From Corallococcus macrosporus DSM 14697 (GTDB lineage Bacteria; Myxococcota; Myxococcia; Myxococcales; Myxococcaceae): 64,000 nt of DNA. Under the pieces are notes generated by a model that ran no database searches, had not been told where the DNA came from, and saw nothing but the letters and a program-made list of their open reading frames with translations. The DNA lies in assembly GCF_002305895.1 (NCBI RefSeq), contig NZ_CP022203.1, positions 186,001-250,000 of the forward strand, read 5' to 3'. Below are positions 17,465 to 23,995 of this stretch, in pieces. Within the stretch, counting starts at the first letter, position 1. Every line of letters starts with the position of its first letter. The translations under genes were made by a program, and so were the position numbers.

Positions 17465-17785
17465 CTACTGCTGGCCTTCCGGGCTGTGCGTCCCGGGGTC
17501 CATGGTGTCGTCATCCATCATCCCGGAGCCGCCGGTGCCCGCGTCATCCATCATCCCGGAGCCGCCGGTGCCCGCGTCATAGCCCTGAATCTCCTGGCCG
17601 CCGCCGCCGGTGCCGCCCATGTCCTCACTGGGGGTCTGATAGCCGCCCTGACCGCTGCCACCCGTGCCCTCCATGCCCGGCGTCGTCGTGGTCCCCTGCT
17701 GGTCACGGTTCTGTTCCCTGCATCCCGTGACGGACATGGCCACCGCCACCGCGCCCAGCACCATCCACCGATTGAGAGCCTGCAT
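17465..17785 (-). CDS. Small Gly-rich lipoprotein with duplicated 11-residue unit
   Basis: A 106-aa protein. The N-terminus MQALNRWMVLGAVAVAMSVT leads into a lipobox (SVTG-Cys22), so it should be a lipidated envelope protein. The mature part is unstructured, rich in Gly, Thr, Ser, Asp and Met. An 11-aa unit, DAGTGGSGMMD, is present twice in direct succession from an exact 33-bp DNA duplication. The ATG at 17785 is preceded by AGGAGG at good spacing. No enzymatic motif; role unknown. It is flanked by the nuclease gene downstream and the methyltransferase operon upstream, with its own apparent terminator. Confidence 0.75.
   Translation of the reverse strand: MQALNRWMVLGAVAVAMSVTGCREQNRDQQGTTTTPGMEGTGGSGQGGYQTPSEDMGGTGGGGQEIQGYDAGTGGSGMMDDAGTGGSGMMDDDTMDPGTHSPEGQQ
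17512..17577. repeat. Perfect 33-bp tandem duplication
   Basis: Two identical copies (17512-17544 and 17545-17577), beginning CATCCATCATCCC and ending GTGCCCGCGT. They stay in frame in the lipoprotein gene and encode the doubled DAGTGGSGMMD unit. Identity at every base implies a recent event and possible length polymorphism. Confidence 0.95.
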
Positions 17786-17930: not shown

Positions 17931-18818
17931 TCAGTCCGCGCGGCGCAGCACGAGCAGCCCGTACTCCAGGCTCCCATCCATCAACGCCTGTTGCAGGCGC
18001 AGGTGCGCGCGGCAGGACTCGCCGCGGCCTGCCTGGGCGAGCGCGCGCAGCGGGTGCTGGGTGAGGTGCGCCGAGGCCGAGGCGCGCTCGTGGACCATCA
18101 GCTCCAACGTCAGCGACCAGAAGCCCACCACGCGCGAGGACACGTCATCCCGCACCTCCAGCTCCAGCCCCGCGGCGTGCGCGGCGGACAGGTACTCGTC
18201 GAGCGAGCCGATGTTCGTGCGCCAGTACCGGTTGAACCCGGCCGCCAGCTCCGGGCGGCGGAGGAAGCAGTCGGCGATGGCCACCACGCCTCCTGGCTTC
18301 AGCAAGGCCCGCGTGCGGCGGAACCACTCCGCGCGAGGCAGGTAGCAGGCGCTCTCCACCGCGACCACCGCGTCGAACGCCGCGCGGCCCGGGACGGACA
18401 GGGCGTCACAGAGCATGGGCCGCACCCGCGCGCCCACGCCCGCGGCCTCCGCGAAGCCGCGCACCAGCGCGACATGCGACGGCACGTTCGTCACCGCCGT
18501 CACCCGCGCCTGGTGCTCGGCGGCCCAGTACAGCGCGCCGCCGCCCAGGCCGCAGCCCACGTCCAGCACGTCTCCGCCGTCCGGGAAGCGGCCCACGGCG
18601 CGTGACAGCTCCATCATCAGGGCTTCCTGCGCGGCGTGGATGCTGGTGCGCAGCGCGGCCCGCGGCGCGCCGGGCGGCGGCACCCCGTCCACCAGGCCGG
18701 AGTGGTAGTGCACGCGCGGGCCTGGCCCGTAGCGCTGGAGCAGCCGCTCCGTCTTCGCCTCGTAGTACGCGCTCACCTCGTCGCGTCTCCAGACGGGTTG
18801 CGCGGCTTCGGCCCTCAT
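17931..18818 (-). CDS. SAM methyltransferase resembling GPP C-methyltransferases
   Basis: A 295-aa class I methyltransferase; motif I is VLDVGCGLGG (84-93). Beyond the core fold it resembles geranyl-diphosphate 2-C-methyltransferases as I remember them: RALLKPGGVVAIADCF, the NRYWRTNIGSLDEYL stretch (family N-I-x-S-x-x-E-Y-L) and a C-terminal DGSLEYGLLVL (family DGS-F/L-x-Y). It is last in a four-gene run, and its ATG overlaps the stop of the isoprenoid-synthase-like gene as ATGA. The likely role is methylation of an isoprenyl diphosphate or derived terpenoid made by the neighbour. General methyltransferase assignment is secure; the isoprenoid substrate is inference. Confidence 0.8.
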   Translation of the reverse strand: MRAEAAQPVWRRDEVSAYYEAKTERLLQRYGPGPRVHYHSGLVDGVPPPGAPRAALRTSIHAAQEALMMELSRAVGRFPDGGDVLDVGCGLGGGALYWAAEHQARVTAVTNVPSHVALVRGFAEAAGVGARVRPMLCDALSVPGRAAFDAVVAVESACYLPRAEWFRRTRALLKPGGVVAIADCFLRRPELAAGFNRYWRTNIGSLDEYLSAAHAAGLELEVRDDVSSRVVGFWSLTLELMVHERASASAHLTQHPLRALAQAGRGESCRAHLRLQQALMDGSLEYGLLVLRRAD

Positions 18819-19552
18819 GACTCCCCCTCTGGCAGCATCGGTTCGATGCGGCGTAGCGCCGCGTCCAGGCAGCGCAGGTCTTGTTGGCGCAGCGCCTGCG
18901 TGGCGGCGCGCGCCCAGTCCACCACCACGTCACGGTCCGCCTGGGGCATGCTGGTGAAGCGGACGTCGCGCGTGCGGATGTCCTCCGCCACGTGCGCCGC
19001 CACGCCCAGCGCCCGGCCCGCCGCCGCCGCGCGCGGCTCCAGCACCGTGCCCGCCCACAACACCCGCAGGTACGCGGCCCACTGCTGGCCGGCGATGCCC
19101 TCCGCCACCTGGCGGAACAGCGGCGCCGTCCAAGTGCTGGCGCGCACCTCCAGCGCCTGCGGGCCCGCGGCCATCGCCAGCGTGCGCACCGCGTCCTCCA
19201 GCACCGGGCCGGGAACCCGCGCCCGCGCGCCACACAGCGTGGCGAAGGCCAGGTTCTGGAGGATGAACTGCACGCACGGCCCCACGCGGATGGGCGGGTC
19301 GTGGTACGTGCACTCGCCGTCGATGAGGTCGTCGGCGAGGTTGCCCGCGCTGAAGCTGAGGAAGAGCCCGGCGCCGCGCGCCAGCAGGGCGTCGCGGGGC
19401 AGGCCGGCCTCCGCGCCCGCTTCATAGAAGAGCGCCAGGGGCCCGGGCTGCGCCGCCTCCAGCGCCGCGAGCACGTCCCGCTCCGACGCCTCCGGCAAGG
19501 CGAGCCGGCGCAGCGTCCGGAGGGACTCCTGGTACAGGGCGCCGCCGCTCAT
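18815..19552 (-). CDS. DDxxD isoprenoid-synthase-like protein (all-alpha, polyprenyl-synthetase type)
   Basis: A 245-aa, nearly all-helical protein. It carries an Asp-rich motif DDLID at 74-78 (SAGNLADDLIDGE), the Mg-diphosphate-binding DDxxD of polyprenyl synthetases and terpene synthases. A second acidic site, AEDIRTRD (189-196), lies where the second Asp-rich motif would be. It is shorter than housekeeping GGPP/FPP synthases (about 300 aa), nearer ComQ-type isoprenyl transferases in size. The true start is the ATG at 19552, overlapping the kinase stop as ATGA. Its stop likewise overlaps the methyltransferase start. Operon context suggests a dedicated terpenoid rather than primary metabolism. 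It could also be a catalytically altered relative. Confidence 0.7.
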   Translation of the reverse strand: MSGGALYQESLRTLRRLALPEASERDVLAALEAAQPGPLALFYEAGAEAGLPRDALLARGAGLFLSFSAGNLADDLIDGECTYHDPPIRVGPCVQFILQNLAFATLCGARARVPGPVLEDAVRTLAMAAGPQALEVRASTWTAPLFRQVAEGIAGQQWAAYLRVLWAGTVLEPRAAAAGRALGVAAHVAEDIRTRDVRFTSMPQADRDVVVDWARAATQALRQQDLRCLDAALRRIEPMLPEGES

Positions 19553-20907
19553 CGGTACTCCCTGGGCAGGAGCATGCGCAGCACGGCCCCGCCCCCGGCC
19601 GCGTTCTGCCGGTGCAGCATGCCGCCGCTGGCGCGCAACAGGCACTCGCTGGTGTAGAGGCCCAGGCCCGTCGCGTGGGGCTTGCTGGTGTACAGCGCCT
19701 CCGTGGGGCGGCCGAGCTGGCCGGGCGGGAAGCCGGGGCCGTCATCCGTGATGGTGACCTCCAGGCGCCCGCTGAGCGGCTCCACGCGCGCGTGGATGTG
19801 GACGCGGGCCGCGCCCTCCTCGCCGTTGCCCTCGCAGGCGTTGAGCACCAGGTTCTCCACCACGCGGCGCAGCGTGGGGGCGCCGCCGCGCATCAGCGCG
19901 CGCGGGGGCGGGGCGGGCTGCTCCACCTCCACCTGGATGTCCACGTCCGGGAAGCGCAGGCCCACGCTGGCCTGCACCGCGTCCAGCACCGGCGCCAGCT
20001 CCACGGGCTCCGGCTCCGCGCCGGCGTGGCGCCGCCCCTTGGCGCGGGCGTCCATCACCATGTCCCGTATCTGCGCCAGGGTTTCGTTGAGCTGGCGGAG
20101 CAGGTCGTCGAACTCGGTGCGGCCGGGCCCCGGGCGGTGCGCGCCCACCACGCCCAGCATGTCCGCCACGCTGCCCGCGGCCATCAGCGCGTTGTCGATG
20201 TCGTGGTGGTAGCCCAGGATTTCCGACAGGGCCTGGGACAGGCGGCCCACGTCGCGCTCCTGCTGCTCCAGGAGCTGCGCGTGCACGGCGGCCCGCAGGC
20301 GCTCCGCGTCCGCGCGGGCCCGGTCATGCTGCACGGCGAAGGTCCCCAGGTAGAGCTGGGCGGTGAGCGCCGCGGGGCCGATGACGCCGAAGAGGGCCAG
20401 GTGCTCGTCGCCGCCGCGCAGGGGCAACGCCAGCGCCAGGGCCAGCGCGGTGCCCAGGGCGAGGAAGGGCTGGCGCGGCGTCACCCGGTGCAGGCGGCCG
20501 TGGAAGGCGGTGGTGAAGAGGAAGAGCGAGGCGATGACGGTGGCGCCGGGCAGCGCCGACAGCGCCATCAGCGCGGCCACGAAGAAGTGCATGGCGGCCA
20601 CGCCCGCGGCCAGCCACACCCAGCCCCAGGGCTCCACGCGGCGGCGGCGCCGGTGGACCAGCGAGAAGAGCACGCCGCTGGCCAGCATGGGCACGGCGCA
20701 CAGCAGCGCCGTGCCGAAGGGGAGGCCGAAGAAGCTCCGCGCGCCGGGGGCCCAGGCCATCATGGCGAGCAGCGCGGGGACGAAGGCGCAGAGCGCCAGC
20801 CACGCGCCCAGCCCCGAGGCGGCCATCACCTCCGCCGCATCCTGGGCGCGCGTCCATCGCCGGAACGAGGCCAGGAGGGCCTGGCGCCCGGCGGAGGCCG
20901 CGCTCAT
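19549..20907 (-). CDS. Six-TM sensor histidine kinase in an isoprenoid operon
   Basis: A 452-aa kinase. Residues 1-195 hold about six TM helices (near 32-52, 62-84, 96-116, 120-136, 148-165, 170-190) with short loops and no periplasmic domain, suggesting it senses a membrane-soluble ligand. A coiled linker leads to the phospho-acceptor region LGYHHDIDNAL (His234/His235, an HDxxN pattern). The ATPase has an N box in VVENLVLNACEGN, a G1 box in ITDDGPGFPPG and a G2 box in ATGLGLYTSECLL. It overlaps both neighbours by 4 bp (ATGA). No response regulator lies nearby, so its partner is unknown. Polytopic sensor plus isoprenoid enzymes recalls ComP/ComQ, though homology is not claimed. Confidence 0.85.
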   Translation of the reverse strand: MSAASAGRQALLASFRRWTRAQDAAEVMAASGLGAWLALCAFVPALLAMMAWAPGARSFFGLPFGTALLCAVPMLASGVLFSLVHRRRRRVEPWGWVWLAAGVAAMHFFVAALMALSALPGATVIASLFLFTTAFHGRLHRVTPRQPFLALGTALALALALPLRGGDEHLALFGVIGPAALTAQLYLGTFAVQHDRARADAERLRAAVHAQLLEQQERDVGRLSQALSEILGYHHDIDNALMAAGSVADMLGVVGAHRPGPGRTEFDDLLRQLNETLAQIRDMVMDARAKGRRHAGAEPEPVELAPVLDAVQASVGLRFPDVDIQVEVEQPAPPPRALMRGGAPTLRRVVENLVLNACEGNGEEGAARVHIHARVEPLSGRLEVTITDDGPGFPPGQLGRPTEALYTSKPHATGLGLYTSECLLRASGGMLHRQNAAGGGAVLRMLLPREYR

Positions 20908-21248
20908 ACGGTGGCGGACAGGGTGTCATCCGCCGTGTCGAGGGTGGAGGACTCCTCGGTGGCGCGCTCGGCCCGGAGGTTCAGCTCGTCGACGAGGTCC
21001 GCGTTGCCGCGCTGGAGGATGTGCACCGACACCTCGCCGCCGGCGAGGACGTGGTGGAGGGCCTCCAGCACCGGCCGGAGCGCGGGGTTGAGCACGCGCG
21101 CGCCCAGCGGCCCCTCCACCGCCCCCAGCTCGCGGCCGCGGGCCAGGTAGTCCGCCAGCGCGCGGGCCCTTGGGACGTCGCCGTGCGGGCTGTCAGGCGC
21201 CGCCCGGGCCGTCCGGTTTCGGGGCCTGGGCGCCGCGGGCGCGCCCAT
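20904..21248 (-). CDS. Small hypothetical protein leading the kinase/isoprenoid operon
   Basis: A 114-aa protein if started at the ATG at 21248; the frame stays open to 21374. The N-terminal 30 residues are basic, Pro/Ala-rich and probably disordered. The rest (ARALADYLARGRELG, ALRPVLEALHHVLAGGEVSVHILQRGN) looks folded and helical, ending in an acidic Ser/Thr-rich tail. There is no Trp or Cys, so it does not look like a ComX-type prenylated peptide precursor. Its stop overlaps the kinase start as ATGA, which argues that it is translated. Function unknown; it may be a regulatory partner of the kinase. Confidence 0.6.
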   Translation of the reverse strand: MGAPAAPRPRNRTARAAPDSPHGDVPRARALADYLARGRELGAVEGPLGARVLNPALRPVLEALHHVLAGGEVSVHILQRGNADLVDELNLRAERATEESSTLDTADDTLSATV

Positions 21249-22391: not shown

Positions 22392-22506
22392 GGGCCGTGC
22401 TCCGTCCGGTGCTGGATGGGCGCGTCCCCGGAGGACGCGGGGCCCGGGAGGGGCCGGTGTGTTCGTGCTCGCCTTCGGGCGCGGCGCCGCGCTAGAGGAC
22501 GGCTCC

Positions 22507-23163
22507 ATGCGTGACCGAATCCAGGCCGTGCTCCGCCAACTCGTCCAGACGCCCGAGCTGGAGGCGCGCTGGCTGCACACCGTGTCCCTGATGGAGTTCA
22601 TCGGCGCGCGGAAGATTTCGCGCACCGTGGCGGACCGGCACCCGTCGCTGGAGGTGTTGGGGCACCTGGCCGATGAGACGCGCCACGCCTTCGCCTTCAA
22701 GCGCCTGTCGGCCGAGGTCGCCGGCGCGGAAATCACCACCTTCCTCTGCCATGAGGCGGCGGGCCGCTACTTCCAGGCGCTGGACCACGCGCTGGCCACC
22801 TGGGCCACGTCCTTCACCGGCGCGCCGGACGTCTACCTGCACTACCTGCTCACGACGACGGCCATCGAGCGGCGCGCCATGGTGCTGTATCCGCTCTACA
22901 AGGCGGCGTCCCGCCACCCGGCCGTGCGCGAGGAGCTGGGGCGCGTCGTCACCGAGGAGCAGAGCCACCGGCGCTCCATCGAGGACGCGTGTGTCGAGCG
23001 GCTCACCGCCGTGGGCGCCTCGCTGGAGGACGCGCTGGCGCTGGAGGAGCGGCTCTTCGCGGCCTTCATCGGCGAGCTGGAGGCCACCGTGGCGCGGGAG
23101 CTGGCCGCCTTCGTCCCGGCGGAGGGTGACGGCGCCGCCGCGCGCACCGAAGCGGTGAAGTAG
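22507..23163 (+). CDS. Ferritin-like four-helix protein, putative carboxylate di-iron site
   Basis: A 218-aa all-helical protein. Candidate metal ligands occur in pairs: LADETRHAF (E..H), TAIERRAM and TEEQSHRRSIE (E..H). This is the E-x-x-H layout of ferritin-like di-iron proteins. No signal peptide. The ATG at 22507 has AGAGGA eight bases upstream and is preferred to a GTG at 22459. It converges on the methyltransferase gene with 17 bp between stops. Substrate and role unknown; it could be an oxygenase or merely a ferritin-like fold. Confidence 0.65.
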   Translation: MRDRIQAVLRQLVQTPELEARWLHTVSLMEFIGARKISRTVADRHPSLEVLGHLADETRHAFAFKRLSAEVAGAEITTFLCHEAAGRYFQALDHALATWATSFTGAPDVYLHYLLTTTAIERRAMVLYPLYKAASRHPAVREELGRVVTEEQSHRRSIEDACVERLTAVGASLEDALALEERLFAAFIGELEATVARELAAFVPAEGDGAAARTEAVK

Positions 23164-23180: not shown

Positions 23181-23927
23181 CTACAGCCCGTCCTCTTCGC
23201 TCTCGCTCCCGGGCGCGCCCGTGCCGTGGGCGCCGCTCAGGACGAGCGTGCCCTCTGTCATCTCCGCGCGCAGGTTGCGGGCCTTGCGCGCCCGCTTGCG
23301 GCTGAGCTCCACGCCCACCGAGTCCAGCCCCAGCGCGTTGGCCACGGCCAGCACGGTGCCGTGGCCGCAGAAGGGGTCCACCACCGTGCGCGTCCGCGTG
23401 TGCTCCAGGATGAAGCGGCACGCGATGAGGCACGCCTCCACGCCCATGCCGCGCGTCCACGTCACCTCGCCCGCTTCGGGCAGCACGTCCGGCGTGGACT
23501 TCGCCAGGTCCACGCGGACGCCGCGCGAGAAACACAGCATGTGGGAGTACGCGGGCCGGCCGAACGTCACGGTCCCCGGAGGCCGCCGGCACACCACCTT
23601 GTGCCAGAGCAGCTCCACGCCCACCTCCTCCGCGGCGCGAGACACCAGGTAGCCCTTGTCCACCCAGGTGCCCTCTTCCTTCACGTCCGTCTGGTAGAAG
23701 ATGGCCACGCCCTCGGGCGGCACGCGCGCCAGGATGAGCGCCGCGGCGCGGATGAACCACGCCTTCCAGTCCGCCAGCGACAGCGACGGGAACTCCGACC
23801 AGTCCGGCAGCGACGCGATGGCCGAGCTGCCCGCCAGCGCTGGCCGCGCTTCCAGCCACACGAGTGCGTCTTCGCAGTACACCGTGCGCTTTGCTGCGCC
23901 CGCGGCGCCTTCCCGTTCGTCCACCAT
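23181..23927 (-). CDS. SAM methyltransferase with permuted DNA-methylase-like layout
   Basis: A 248-aa protein. The AdoMet-binding motif I, TVVDPFCGHGTVLAVAN (DPFCGHGT at 184-191), sits in the C-terminal third, followed by LDSVGVELSRKRARKARN. This is the order seen in beta-class N4/N6 DNA methylases. At the position of the catalytic (D/N/S)PP(Y/F/W) motif, however, the sequence is SLPDW (39-43). It may modify another substrate or be a divergent orphan methylase; no restriction gene is nearby. The ATG at 23927 (MVDEREGAAG) is favoured; an upstream ATG at 23981 adds an Arg/Ser-rich leader. Confidence 0.7.
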   Translation of the reverse strand: MVDEREGAAGAAKRTVYCEDALVWLEARPALAGSSAIASLPDWSEFPSLSLADWKAWFIRAAALILARVPPEGVAIFYQTDVKEEGTWVDKGYLVSRAAEEVGVELLWHKVVCRRPPGTVTFGRPAYSHMLCFSRGVRVDLAKSTPDVLPEAGEVTWTRGMGVEACLIACRFILEHTRTRTVVDPFCGHGTVLAVANALGLDSVGVELSRKRARKARNLRAEMTEGTLVLSGAHGTGAPGSESEEDGL

Positions 23928-23995
23928 GCGGTGGCGGAGTCTGCCAGAGCCGCGCGCACTCCGCGTCGGGCTGGTCAACACGCCGAAACCGTGGC

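What the first reader, a model, noticed from the sequence alone, without database searches (positions are those of the whole stretch)
17931..21248. Four-gene ATGA-coupled operon joins a 6-TM histidine kinase to isoprenoid synthesis and methylation
Seen: small protein, polytopic kinase, DDxxD isoprenoid-synthase-like protein and methyltransferase, each overlapping the next by 4 bp. Known: the methyltransferase resembles GPP C-methyltransferases (NIxSxxEYL, C-terminal DGSxxY), and ComQ/ComP in Bacillus pairs an isoprenyl transferase with a polytopic kinase. Inference: the enzymes make a methylated isoprenoid that the kinase, with no periplasmic domain, senses in the membrane. This would be a self-contained signalling module not, to my knowledge, described in myxobacteria. 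The operon has no ComX-like peptide and no response regulator.
Basis: partly seen in the sequence, partly recalled or inferred. Interest (0 to 1): 0.8.

Follow-up and report, generated by a model that had tools for sequence, protein, structure and literature searches.

The report
Kinase-coupled isoprenoid gene module in myxobacteria
A set of four overlapping genes, kept together across myxobacteria, joins a membrane sensor kinase to a stripped-down isoprenoid-synthase-like protein and an enzyme of the family that adds a methyl group to isoprenoids, so these bacteria may make and sense their own modified terpene, but neither the chemical nor the signal has been shown.

Summary
Four minus-strand genes (small protein, polytopic histidine kinase, 245-aa DDxxD protein, methyltransferase) overlap by ATGA at all three junctions. 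The 245-aa protein matches no Pfam family. Its AlphaFold model (pLDDT 94) matches isoprenyl diphosphate synthases over its full length (Z up to 23). It keeps DDxxD but has lost the isopentenyl-diphosphate site and all but the second Asp of the second motif, as described for ComQ. The methyltransferase is 44% identical to BezA and 38% to the C6-FPP methyltransferase, with their catalytic Glu and Phe-Trp.

The genes are conserved together: 27 of 27 genomes of the genus have all but part of one small gene. The protein and methyltransferase are fused in two MAG lineages. Deep relatives keep small-kinase-synthase-like and add a receiver domain. Where parts are lost, the rest often loses active-site residues.

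No product, ligand or response regulator is known in Myxococcus. My best explanation is a ComQ-like non-elongating prenyl-diphosphate enzyme, with methylation in most Myxococcaceae, functionally tied to a six-TM receptor kinase.

The parts
20904..21248 (-). Small protein (114 aa as called; conserved part from about residue 26-34), first gene of the operon
   Evidence: 19 homologues, invariant Y34, L41, G42, A63, H65, A69-G71, G81, L89; no Pfam match; found in 46 of 193 Myxococcota genomes, nearly only where the DD protein also is (vs 38)
19549..20907 (-). Polytopic sensor histidine kinase (452 aa), five or six TM segments, HATPase_c
   Evidence: (PF02518 6e-16)
20200..20202 (-). Putative phospho-acceptor His236 of the kinase (GYHHDIDN)
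   Evidence: Alignment; Q, E or N in several other lineages
18815..19552 (-). DD protein (245 aa): isoprenyl-diphosphate-synthase fold, IPP site lost
   Evidence: pLDDT 94.3; Z up to 23.4 over residues 1-238
19319..19333 (-). DDLID motif (D74-D78), first aspartate-rich motif
   Evidence: D74, D75, D78 invariant down to relatives of 17-21% identity; lost only in Citreicoccus
18980..18985 (-). E190-D191, pseudo second aspartate-rich motif with only the second Asp conserved
   Evidence: hhalign places it on the first two Asp (DD of QDDILD) of the second motif of the FPP synthases; D191 invariant
17931..18818 (-). SAM-dependent methyltransferase (295 aa) of the C6-prenyl-diphosphate C-methyltransferase family
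   Evidence: (BezA 7fbh 6e-53; C6-FPP-MT 9tb4 4e-52)
18354..18356 (-). Catalytic-base Glu155 of the methyltransferase (Glu165 of 9tb4, Glu170 of BezA)
   Evidence: role from PMC12929941

Best explanation
A kinase-coupled isoprenoid module. Shown: the DD protein has the trans-isoprenyl-diphosphate-synthase fold, keeps the metal-binding DDxxD, and lacks the IPP-binding residues, so it should not elongate chains. Inferred: like ComQ, it binds an allylic diphosphate (GPP or FPP size) through Mg2+ and DDxxD, and ionises and transfers, cyclises or hydrolyses the prenyl group. Where the methyltransferase is present, it works in sequence or in complex with DD on a C6-methylated prenyl diphosphate, as terpene cyclases do with their methyltransferases. 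Inferred and least certain: the lipophilic product is perceived in the membrane by the six-TM kinase, which is translationally coupled to DD; in Myxococcus the kinase would signal to an unlinked response regulator. The small protein is probably a cytoplasmic partner of the kinase or of DD.
For: Fold: model pLDDT 94.3, Foldseek E down to 3.6e-5 and Z 21-23 over residues 1-238/243 against FPP and GGPP synthases; hhalign E 5e-4. D74, D75, D78, E135, W141, G155, D191, D196 and R198 are invariant in the deep alignment. GGKRxRP, RRG and the KT lysine are replaced. Methyltransferase: 44% identity to BezA and 38% to C6-FPP-MT, with Tyr30, Tyr/Phe38, Glu155, Phe233 and Trp234 kept (roles in PMC12929941). 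Linkage: conserved gene order, small protein tracking DD (vs 38), DD-MT fusions in L043/L071 and L048/L074, and HK-DD kept next to each other in relatives at 17-21% identity with a receiver gene nearby. Co-erosion: genus g6 lost DD and small, and its methyltransferase lost motif I glycines and the Tyr30/Tyr38 equivalents in part or all; Citreicoccus lost kinase and small, and DD lost DDxxD.
Against: No activity, product or ligand is known. Loss of the basic residues that hold the diphosphate in true synthases could mean no catalysis at all. The methyltransferase is absent in Archangium, in G121 and in the two deep loci, so methylation is not essential. The kinase His is lost in 13 of the f1 loci compared, with further ATP-box decay in L035 and L036, while DD stays intact. 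A MAG of another phylum has small-DD-MT with no kinase. g6 keeps kinase and methyltransferase under purifying selection (omega about 0.3) without DD. Within the family the site is syntenic, so co-conservation there is partly shared ancestry.
Confidence: 0.4

Rival explanations
1. A homoterpene pathway with its own regulator: methyltransferase plus DD (as a divergent terpene cyclase or phosphatase) make a methylated terpenoid used for something else, and the kinase merely controls expression without sensing the product.
For: Characterised homoterpene pathways pair such a methyltransferase with an adjacent class I cyclase (PMC12723460, PMC12929941); DD-MT fusions; DyP peroxidase genes beside the module in Archangium, Citreicoccus and a MAG could be tailoring enzymes.
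Against: HK-DD coupling without the methyltransferase is older and wider than DD-MT; no NSE/DTE motif or RY pair was recognised in DD; the kinase gene is coupled to DD by ATGA throughout the family.
Confidence: 0.27
2. DD is a catalytically dead prenyl-diphosphate-binding protein that reports the cell's isoprenoid pool to the kinase; the methyltransferase modifies or drains the bound ligand.
For: All IPP-site and diphosphate-clamp basic residues are gone while the Asp residues remain; heteromeric plant prenyltransferases with a non-catalytic small subunit (mint GPPS, entry 3krf among the matches) are a precedent; gene coupling to the kinase.
Against: Full DDxxD plus invariant E135, D191, D196, R198 over very distant relatives is more than binding usually needs; DDxxD and its partner residues are lost together only where the kinase is lost.
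Confidence: 0.18
3. A ComQXPA-type pheromone system: DD prenylates the small protein, or a peptide from it, which is secreted and sensed by the kinase.
For: Same cast: IDS-fold protein with FARM and a pseudo-SARM keeping only the second Asp, small ORF, polytopic kinase, and in deep relatives a receiver protein (PMC5331326).
Against: Small protein has no Trp or Cys, is conserved rather than hypervariable and has no visible export signal; the ComQ N/G-D requirement in the pseudo-SARM is not met (E-D here, variable elsewhere).
Confidence: 0.07

Closest known systems
ComQXPA of Bacillus (ComQ isoprenyl transferase, ComX, ComP polytopic kinase, ComA)
   Same: IDS-fold protein with intact FARM and only the second Asp of the SARM, encoded next to a polytopic histidine kinase and a small ORF with gene overlaps; two deep relatives also have a receiver protein nearby
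   Different: No ComX-like Trp peptide; first pseudo-SARM residue is not N or G; kinase has five or six TM segments and no PF07730 match; a methyltransferase is added; no response regulator in Myxococcus; a 2014 census found ComQXPA only in Firmicutes (PMC4008528)
C6-prenyl-diphosphate methyltransferases BezA (7fbh) and C6-FPP-MT/SvaMT (9tb4)
   Same: Homologous over nearly the whole length; catalytic Glu, Phe-Trp pair and GPGPR-x-H-[YF]-H region kept
   Different: Pocket residues differ: His194 to Cys184, Ile205 (Trp in BezA) to Phe195, Tyr209 (Phe in BezA) to Trp199; partner is an IDS-like protein, not a recognised terpene cyclase
Trans-isoprenyl diphosphate synthases (PF00348)
   Same: Full-length fold and DDxxD
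   Different: No Pfam match for the window protein; GGKRxRP, RRG, KT lysine and first SARM Asp lost; 245 aa, shorter than usual
Homoterpene clusters (2-methylisoborneol, sodorifen, kantenol)
   Same: Methyltransferase next to a class I isoprenoid-fold protein
   Different: Kinase and small protein in the same operon; DD lacks a recognisable second metal motif of cyclases

Membership tests
Trans-isoprenyl diphosphate synthase (PF00348) | Isoprenoid synthase type I fold over the whole chain | tested here: met
   Z up to 23.4, rmsd 2.6, 232 residues aligned
Trans-isoprenyl diphosphate synthase (PF00348) | Recognised by the Pfam model | tested here: not met
   No PF00348 match at E up to 10; one deep relative only 0.18
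Trans-isoprenyl diphosphate synthase (PF00348) | First aspartate-rich motif DDxxD | tested here: met
   D74, D75, D78
Trans-isoprenyl diphosphate synthase (PF00348) | Second aspartate-rich motif and IPP-binding GGKRxRP / RRG | tested here: not met
   Only second Asp kept; basic motifs replaced
ComQXPA system | IDS-like ComQ with FARM and pseudo-SARM keeping the second Asp | tested here: met
   criterion from PMC5331326
ComQXPA system | Pseudo-SARM begins N-D or G-D | tested here: not met
   E-D in Myxococcus; K, A, I, Q, S elsewhere
ComQXPA system | ComX pre-peptide with Trp near the C terminus | tested here: not met
   No Trp in the small protein
ComQXPA system | ComP-like kinase (PF07730 and PF02518, 8-10 TM) | tested here: not met
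   PF02518 only, no PF07730; five or six TM segments
ComQXPA system | ComA-like response regulator next to the kinase | tested here: not met
   None by the operon; deep relatives have receiver-only proteins with no match to a DNA-binding domain; no close homologue in Myxococcus
C6-prenyl-diphosphate C-methyltransferase | Homology to BezA and C6-FPP-MT above other SAM methyltransferases | tested here: met
   6e-53 and 4e-52, next best 2e-15
C6-prenyl-diphosphate C-methyltransferase | Catalytic Glu and Phe-Trp pair | tested here: met
   E155, F233, W234
C6-prenyl-diphosphate C-methyltransferase | Methylates GPP or FPP at C6 | not testable with these tools
   Needs an enzyme assay
Class I terpene cyclase partner of a homoterpene methyltransferase | DDxxD plus NSE/DTE triad and RY pair | tested here: inconclusive
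   DDxxD present; D191xxxxDxR is invariant but does not match the NSE spacing
Sensor histidine kinase | Phospho-acceptor His and N, G1, G2 boxes | tested here: met
   Met in this window; His lost in several relatives

The most novel reading that the evidence does not exclude
Myxobacteria have an intracellular or membrane-borne isoprenoid signal (C6-methylated in most Myxococcaceae) made by a ComQ-like non-elongating synthase and perceived by a loop-less six-TM histidine kinase. It would be the first peptide-free isoprenoid two-component signalling system and a new family of isoprenoid-synthase-fold enzymes.
Probability: 0.28. Interest if true: 0.85.

Novelty: new variant of a known kind. Interest (0 to 1): 0.62.

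Why it matters
Terpene methylation is a young field with no known physiological role for most products. Here the methyltransferase is welded to a sensor kinase and to an unclassified isoprenoid-fold protein that resembles ComQ in its key motif pattern but lacks a ComX. If the product is a signal, myxobacteria would have an isoprenoid-based signalling module in addition to A- and C-signalling, and the DD family would show how an isoprenyl synthase is converted to a regulatory enzyme. The fused, truncated and eroded versions give natural controls for testing which part does what.

Tried and rejected
Pfam, NCBIfam and PDB sequence searches with the DD protein alone gave nothing usable; only fold comparison and profile alignment placed it. 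A plasmid search gave no match. The small protein's model is only moderate (pLDDT 76.5) and matched no solved structure with E below 1, so no fold is claimed. A search for the deep relatives' receiver protein in Myxococcus, Archangium and a g8 genome gave no match at E <= 1e-6. Considered and rejected: chance clustering (order kept in distant families and two DD-MT fusions); a non-isoprenoid helical fold (Z 21-23 to IDS); a Myxococcus-only oddity (found in at least two other families and one MAG of another phylum). 'Genes lost in step because they are pseudogenes' was checked: omega in g6 is about 0.3, higher than in Myxococcus but still purifying, so these look like altered proteins rather than dead genes. 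Papers: no report linking a histidine kinase with an IDS-like gene in myxobacteria was found in the open-access library.
Full report
OBSERVATION. The operon is as described. Small (21248-20904), kinase (20907-19549), DD protein (19552-18815) and methyltransferase (18818-17931) lie on the minus strand and overlap by ATGA three times. The window is G000:C1:186001-250000 of an 8.97-Mb single-contig genome, a Myxococcus-type genome by its neighbours. g6 as Corallococcus is my inference.

METHYLTRANSFERASE. Against all PDB chains it hits BezA (7fbh, 6e-53) and C6-FPP methyltransferase (9tb4, 4e-52), then drops to 2e-15. Identity is 44% and 38%. The residues that PMC12929941 shows to be needed in 9tb4 map as follows: Glu165 to E155, Phe243-Trp244 to F233-W234, Tyr37 to Y30, Phe45 to Y38 (Tyr47 in BezA): kept. 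His194 is C184 (Val in BezA), Ile205 is F195 (Trp in BezA), Tyr209 is W199 (Phe in BezA). The two bulky pocket residues lean towards a GPP-sized substrate, because in BezA the W210A change opens the pocket to FPP (PMC10881772); this is inference.

DD PROTEIN. No Pfam, NCBIfam or PDB sequence match. AlphaFold gives pLDDT 94.3 and pTM 0.91. Foldseek's top 50 are isoprenyl diphosphate synthases or prenyltransferases, and VIA-align gives Z 21-23 over residues 1-238/243. Profile-profile alignment to five true synthases gives E 5e-4 and aligns DDLID with the first aspartate-rich motif and E190-D191 with the first two Asp of the second. GGKRxRP, RRG and the KT lysine, invariant in the true synthases, are gone. 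Invariant even with relatives at 17-21% identity: G4, L11, G50, D74, D75, D78, Q95, E135, W141, G155, D191, D196, R198. The genome has three ordinary polyprenyl synthases for chain elongation. PMC5331326 describes ComQ in the same terms: first motif intact and needed, second motif reduced to a lone second Asp that is critical, with N or G before it. The DD family shares the lone Asp but not the N/G rule.

KINASE AND SMALL PROTEIN. The kinase has HATPase_c, an H-box (GYHHDIDN, H236) and intact N, G1 and G2 boxes in the window. In 5 of 27 genomes of the window's genus and in all eight g8/g9 genomes compared, the acceptor His is Gln, Glu or Asn; two g8 genomes (L035, L036) also lose N-box and G-box residues. 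DD keeps DDxxD in all of these. The small protein is conserved (ten invariant residues in 19 sequences), has no Trp or Cys, and its model matches no known fold.

DISTRIBUTION AND ORDER. DD is in 48 of 145 genomes of the order and all 27 of the genus, and in 50 of 195 of the phylum by profile. Small: 46 of 193, almost exactly where kinase and DD are; the match in G112 is partial. Methyltransferase orthologues: 56 of 193. Observed layouts: small-HK-DD-MT in g1, g8 and g9; small-HK-DD without MT in Archangium and G121, confirmed by a whole-genome search that found only generic methyltransferases there; HK-MT with DD and small missing in g6; DyP-DD-MT without HK and small in Citreicoccus; DD-MT fused into one ORF in L043/L071 (550 aa) and L048/L074 (about 523 aa), both with small and HK in the same locus; small-DD-MT without HK in L070, from a genome of another phylum in which no other of 395 genomes searched has DD. 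In deep relatives L094 (order) and L093 (class) the set is small-HK-DD with a receiver-domain gene beside it and no methyltransferase. The kinase and DD are thus the oldest pair, with the small protein; the methyltransferase is an accessory of DD.

CO-EROSION. In five g6 genomes examined, which lack DD, the methyltransferase keeps E155 and FW but has lost one or more motif I glycines in most and the Tyr38 equivalent in all (Cys), with Tyr30 lost in three. Three of the five kinases also read HHQ at the acceptor. In Citreicoccus, which lacks the kinase, DD has lost DDxxD and the Q..E motif and the methyltransferase match starts only at residue 26. Pairwise omega stays at 0.12-0.41 everywhere, g6 methyltransferase 0.31-0.37 against 0.12-0.21 in Myxococcus, with g8 also 0.28-0.38, so the signal is motif loss, not clear neutral decay. 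Within the family the locus is syntenic between sbcCD and a DNA-methylase-like gene, so shared ancestry explains part of the co-conservation; the distant loci have other neighbours and are the independent evidence.

MECHANISM. Shown: fold, motif content, family of the methyltransferase, gene coupling, fusions. Inferred: DD acts on an allylic diphosphate without elongating it; the methyltransferase supplies or modifies that substrate; the membrane kinase responds to the result. That the kinase can lose its His while DD and methyltransferase stay intact means that in those lineages the six-TM protein, if still a receptor, works without autophosphorylation at that site, or through a partner kinase. 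I put 0.4 on the ComQ-like enzyme-plus-receptor reading, 0.27 on a kinase-regulated homoterpene pathway, 0.18 on a dead prenyl-diphosphate sensor and 0.07 on a ComX-like peptide.

COMPARISON. It works somewhat like ComQXPA but is not a member: three defining ComQXPA features were tested and not met (N/G-D, ComX, ComP type), and no ComA is present. It resembles homoterpene MT-cyclase pairs, but DD has no recognised cyclase second motif. The DD family is a new divergent branch of the isoprenoid synthase fold.

Noticed in passing
L068:4933-5901, L071:4018-4917, L072:6832-7833: A DyP-type peroxidase gene (PF20628; below cut-off in L072) sits beside the module in Archangium, a Myxococcaceae MAG and Citreicoccus, but not in Myxococcus; possibly a tailoring enzyme.
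   Followed up: partly
L034-L038, L028-L030, L018, L020, L023, L025, L026: The kinase has lost its phospho-acceptor His (Q, E or N), and in L035/L036 also ATP-binding box residues, while the neighbouring enzymes stay intact: a natural pseudokinase series.
   Followed up: partly
L105-L109: At the same chromosomal site genus g6 (probably Corallococcus) keeps kinase and methyltransferase only; DD and small are cleanly missing, with about 110 bp between the aligned ends of kinase and methyltransferase.
   Followed up: yes
L054 (BNCN01000009.1): A public record titled 'Comamonas sp. KCTC 72670' carries the operon at 88% identity and its genome falls in the window's genus; the record name is probably wrong.
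   Followed up: no
17465-17785: Putative lipoprotein with Gly/Ser-rich GTGGSG repeats just downstream of the operon, conserved in position in most relatives; no Pfam match.
   Followed up: no
22495-23163: Conserved 222-aa protein with no Pfam match, next to the operon in several genera, beside a DNA methylase-like gene at 23181-23981.
   Followed up: no
L070:2062-4050: A MAG from another phylum carries small-DD-MT without a kinase; horizontal transfer of a sub-cassette or a binning error.
   Followed up: partly
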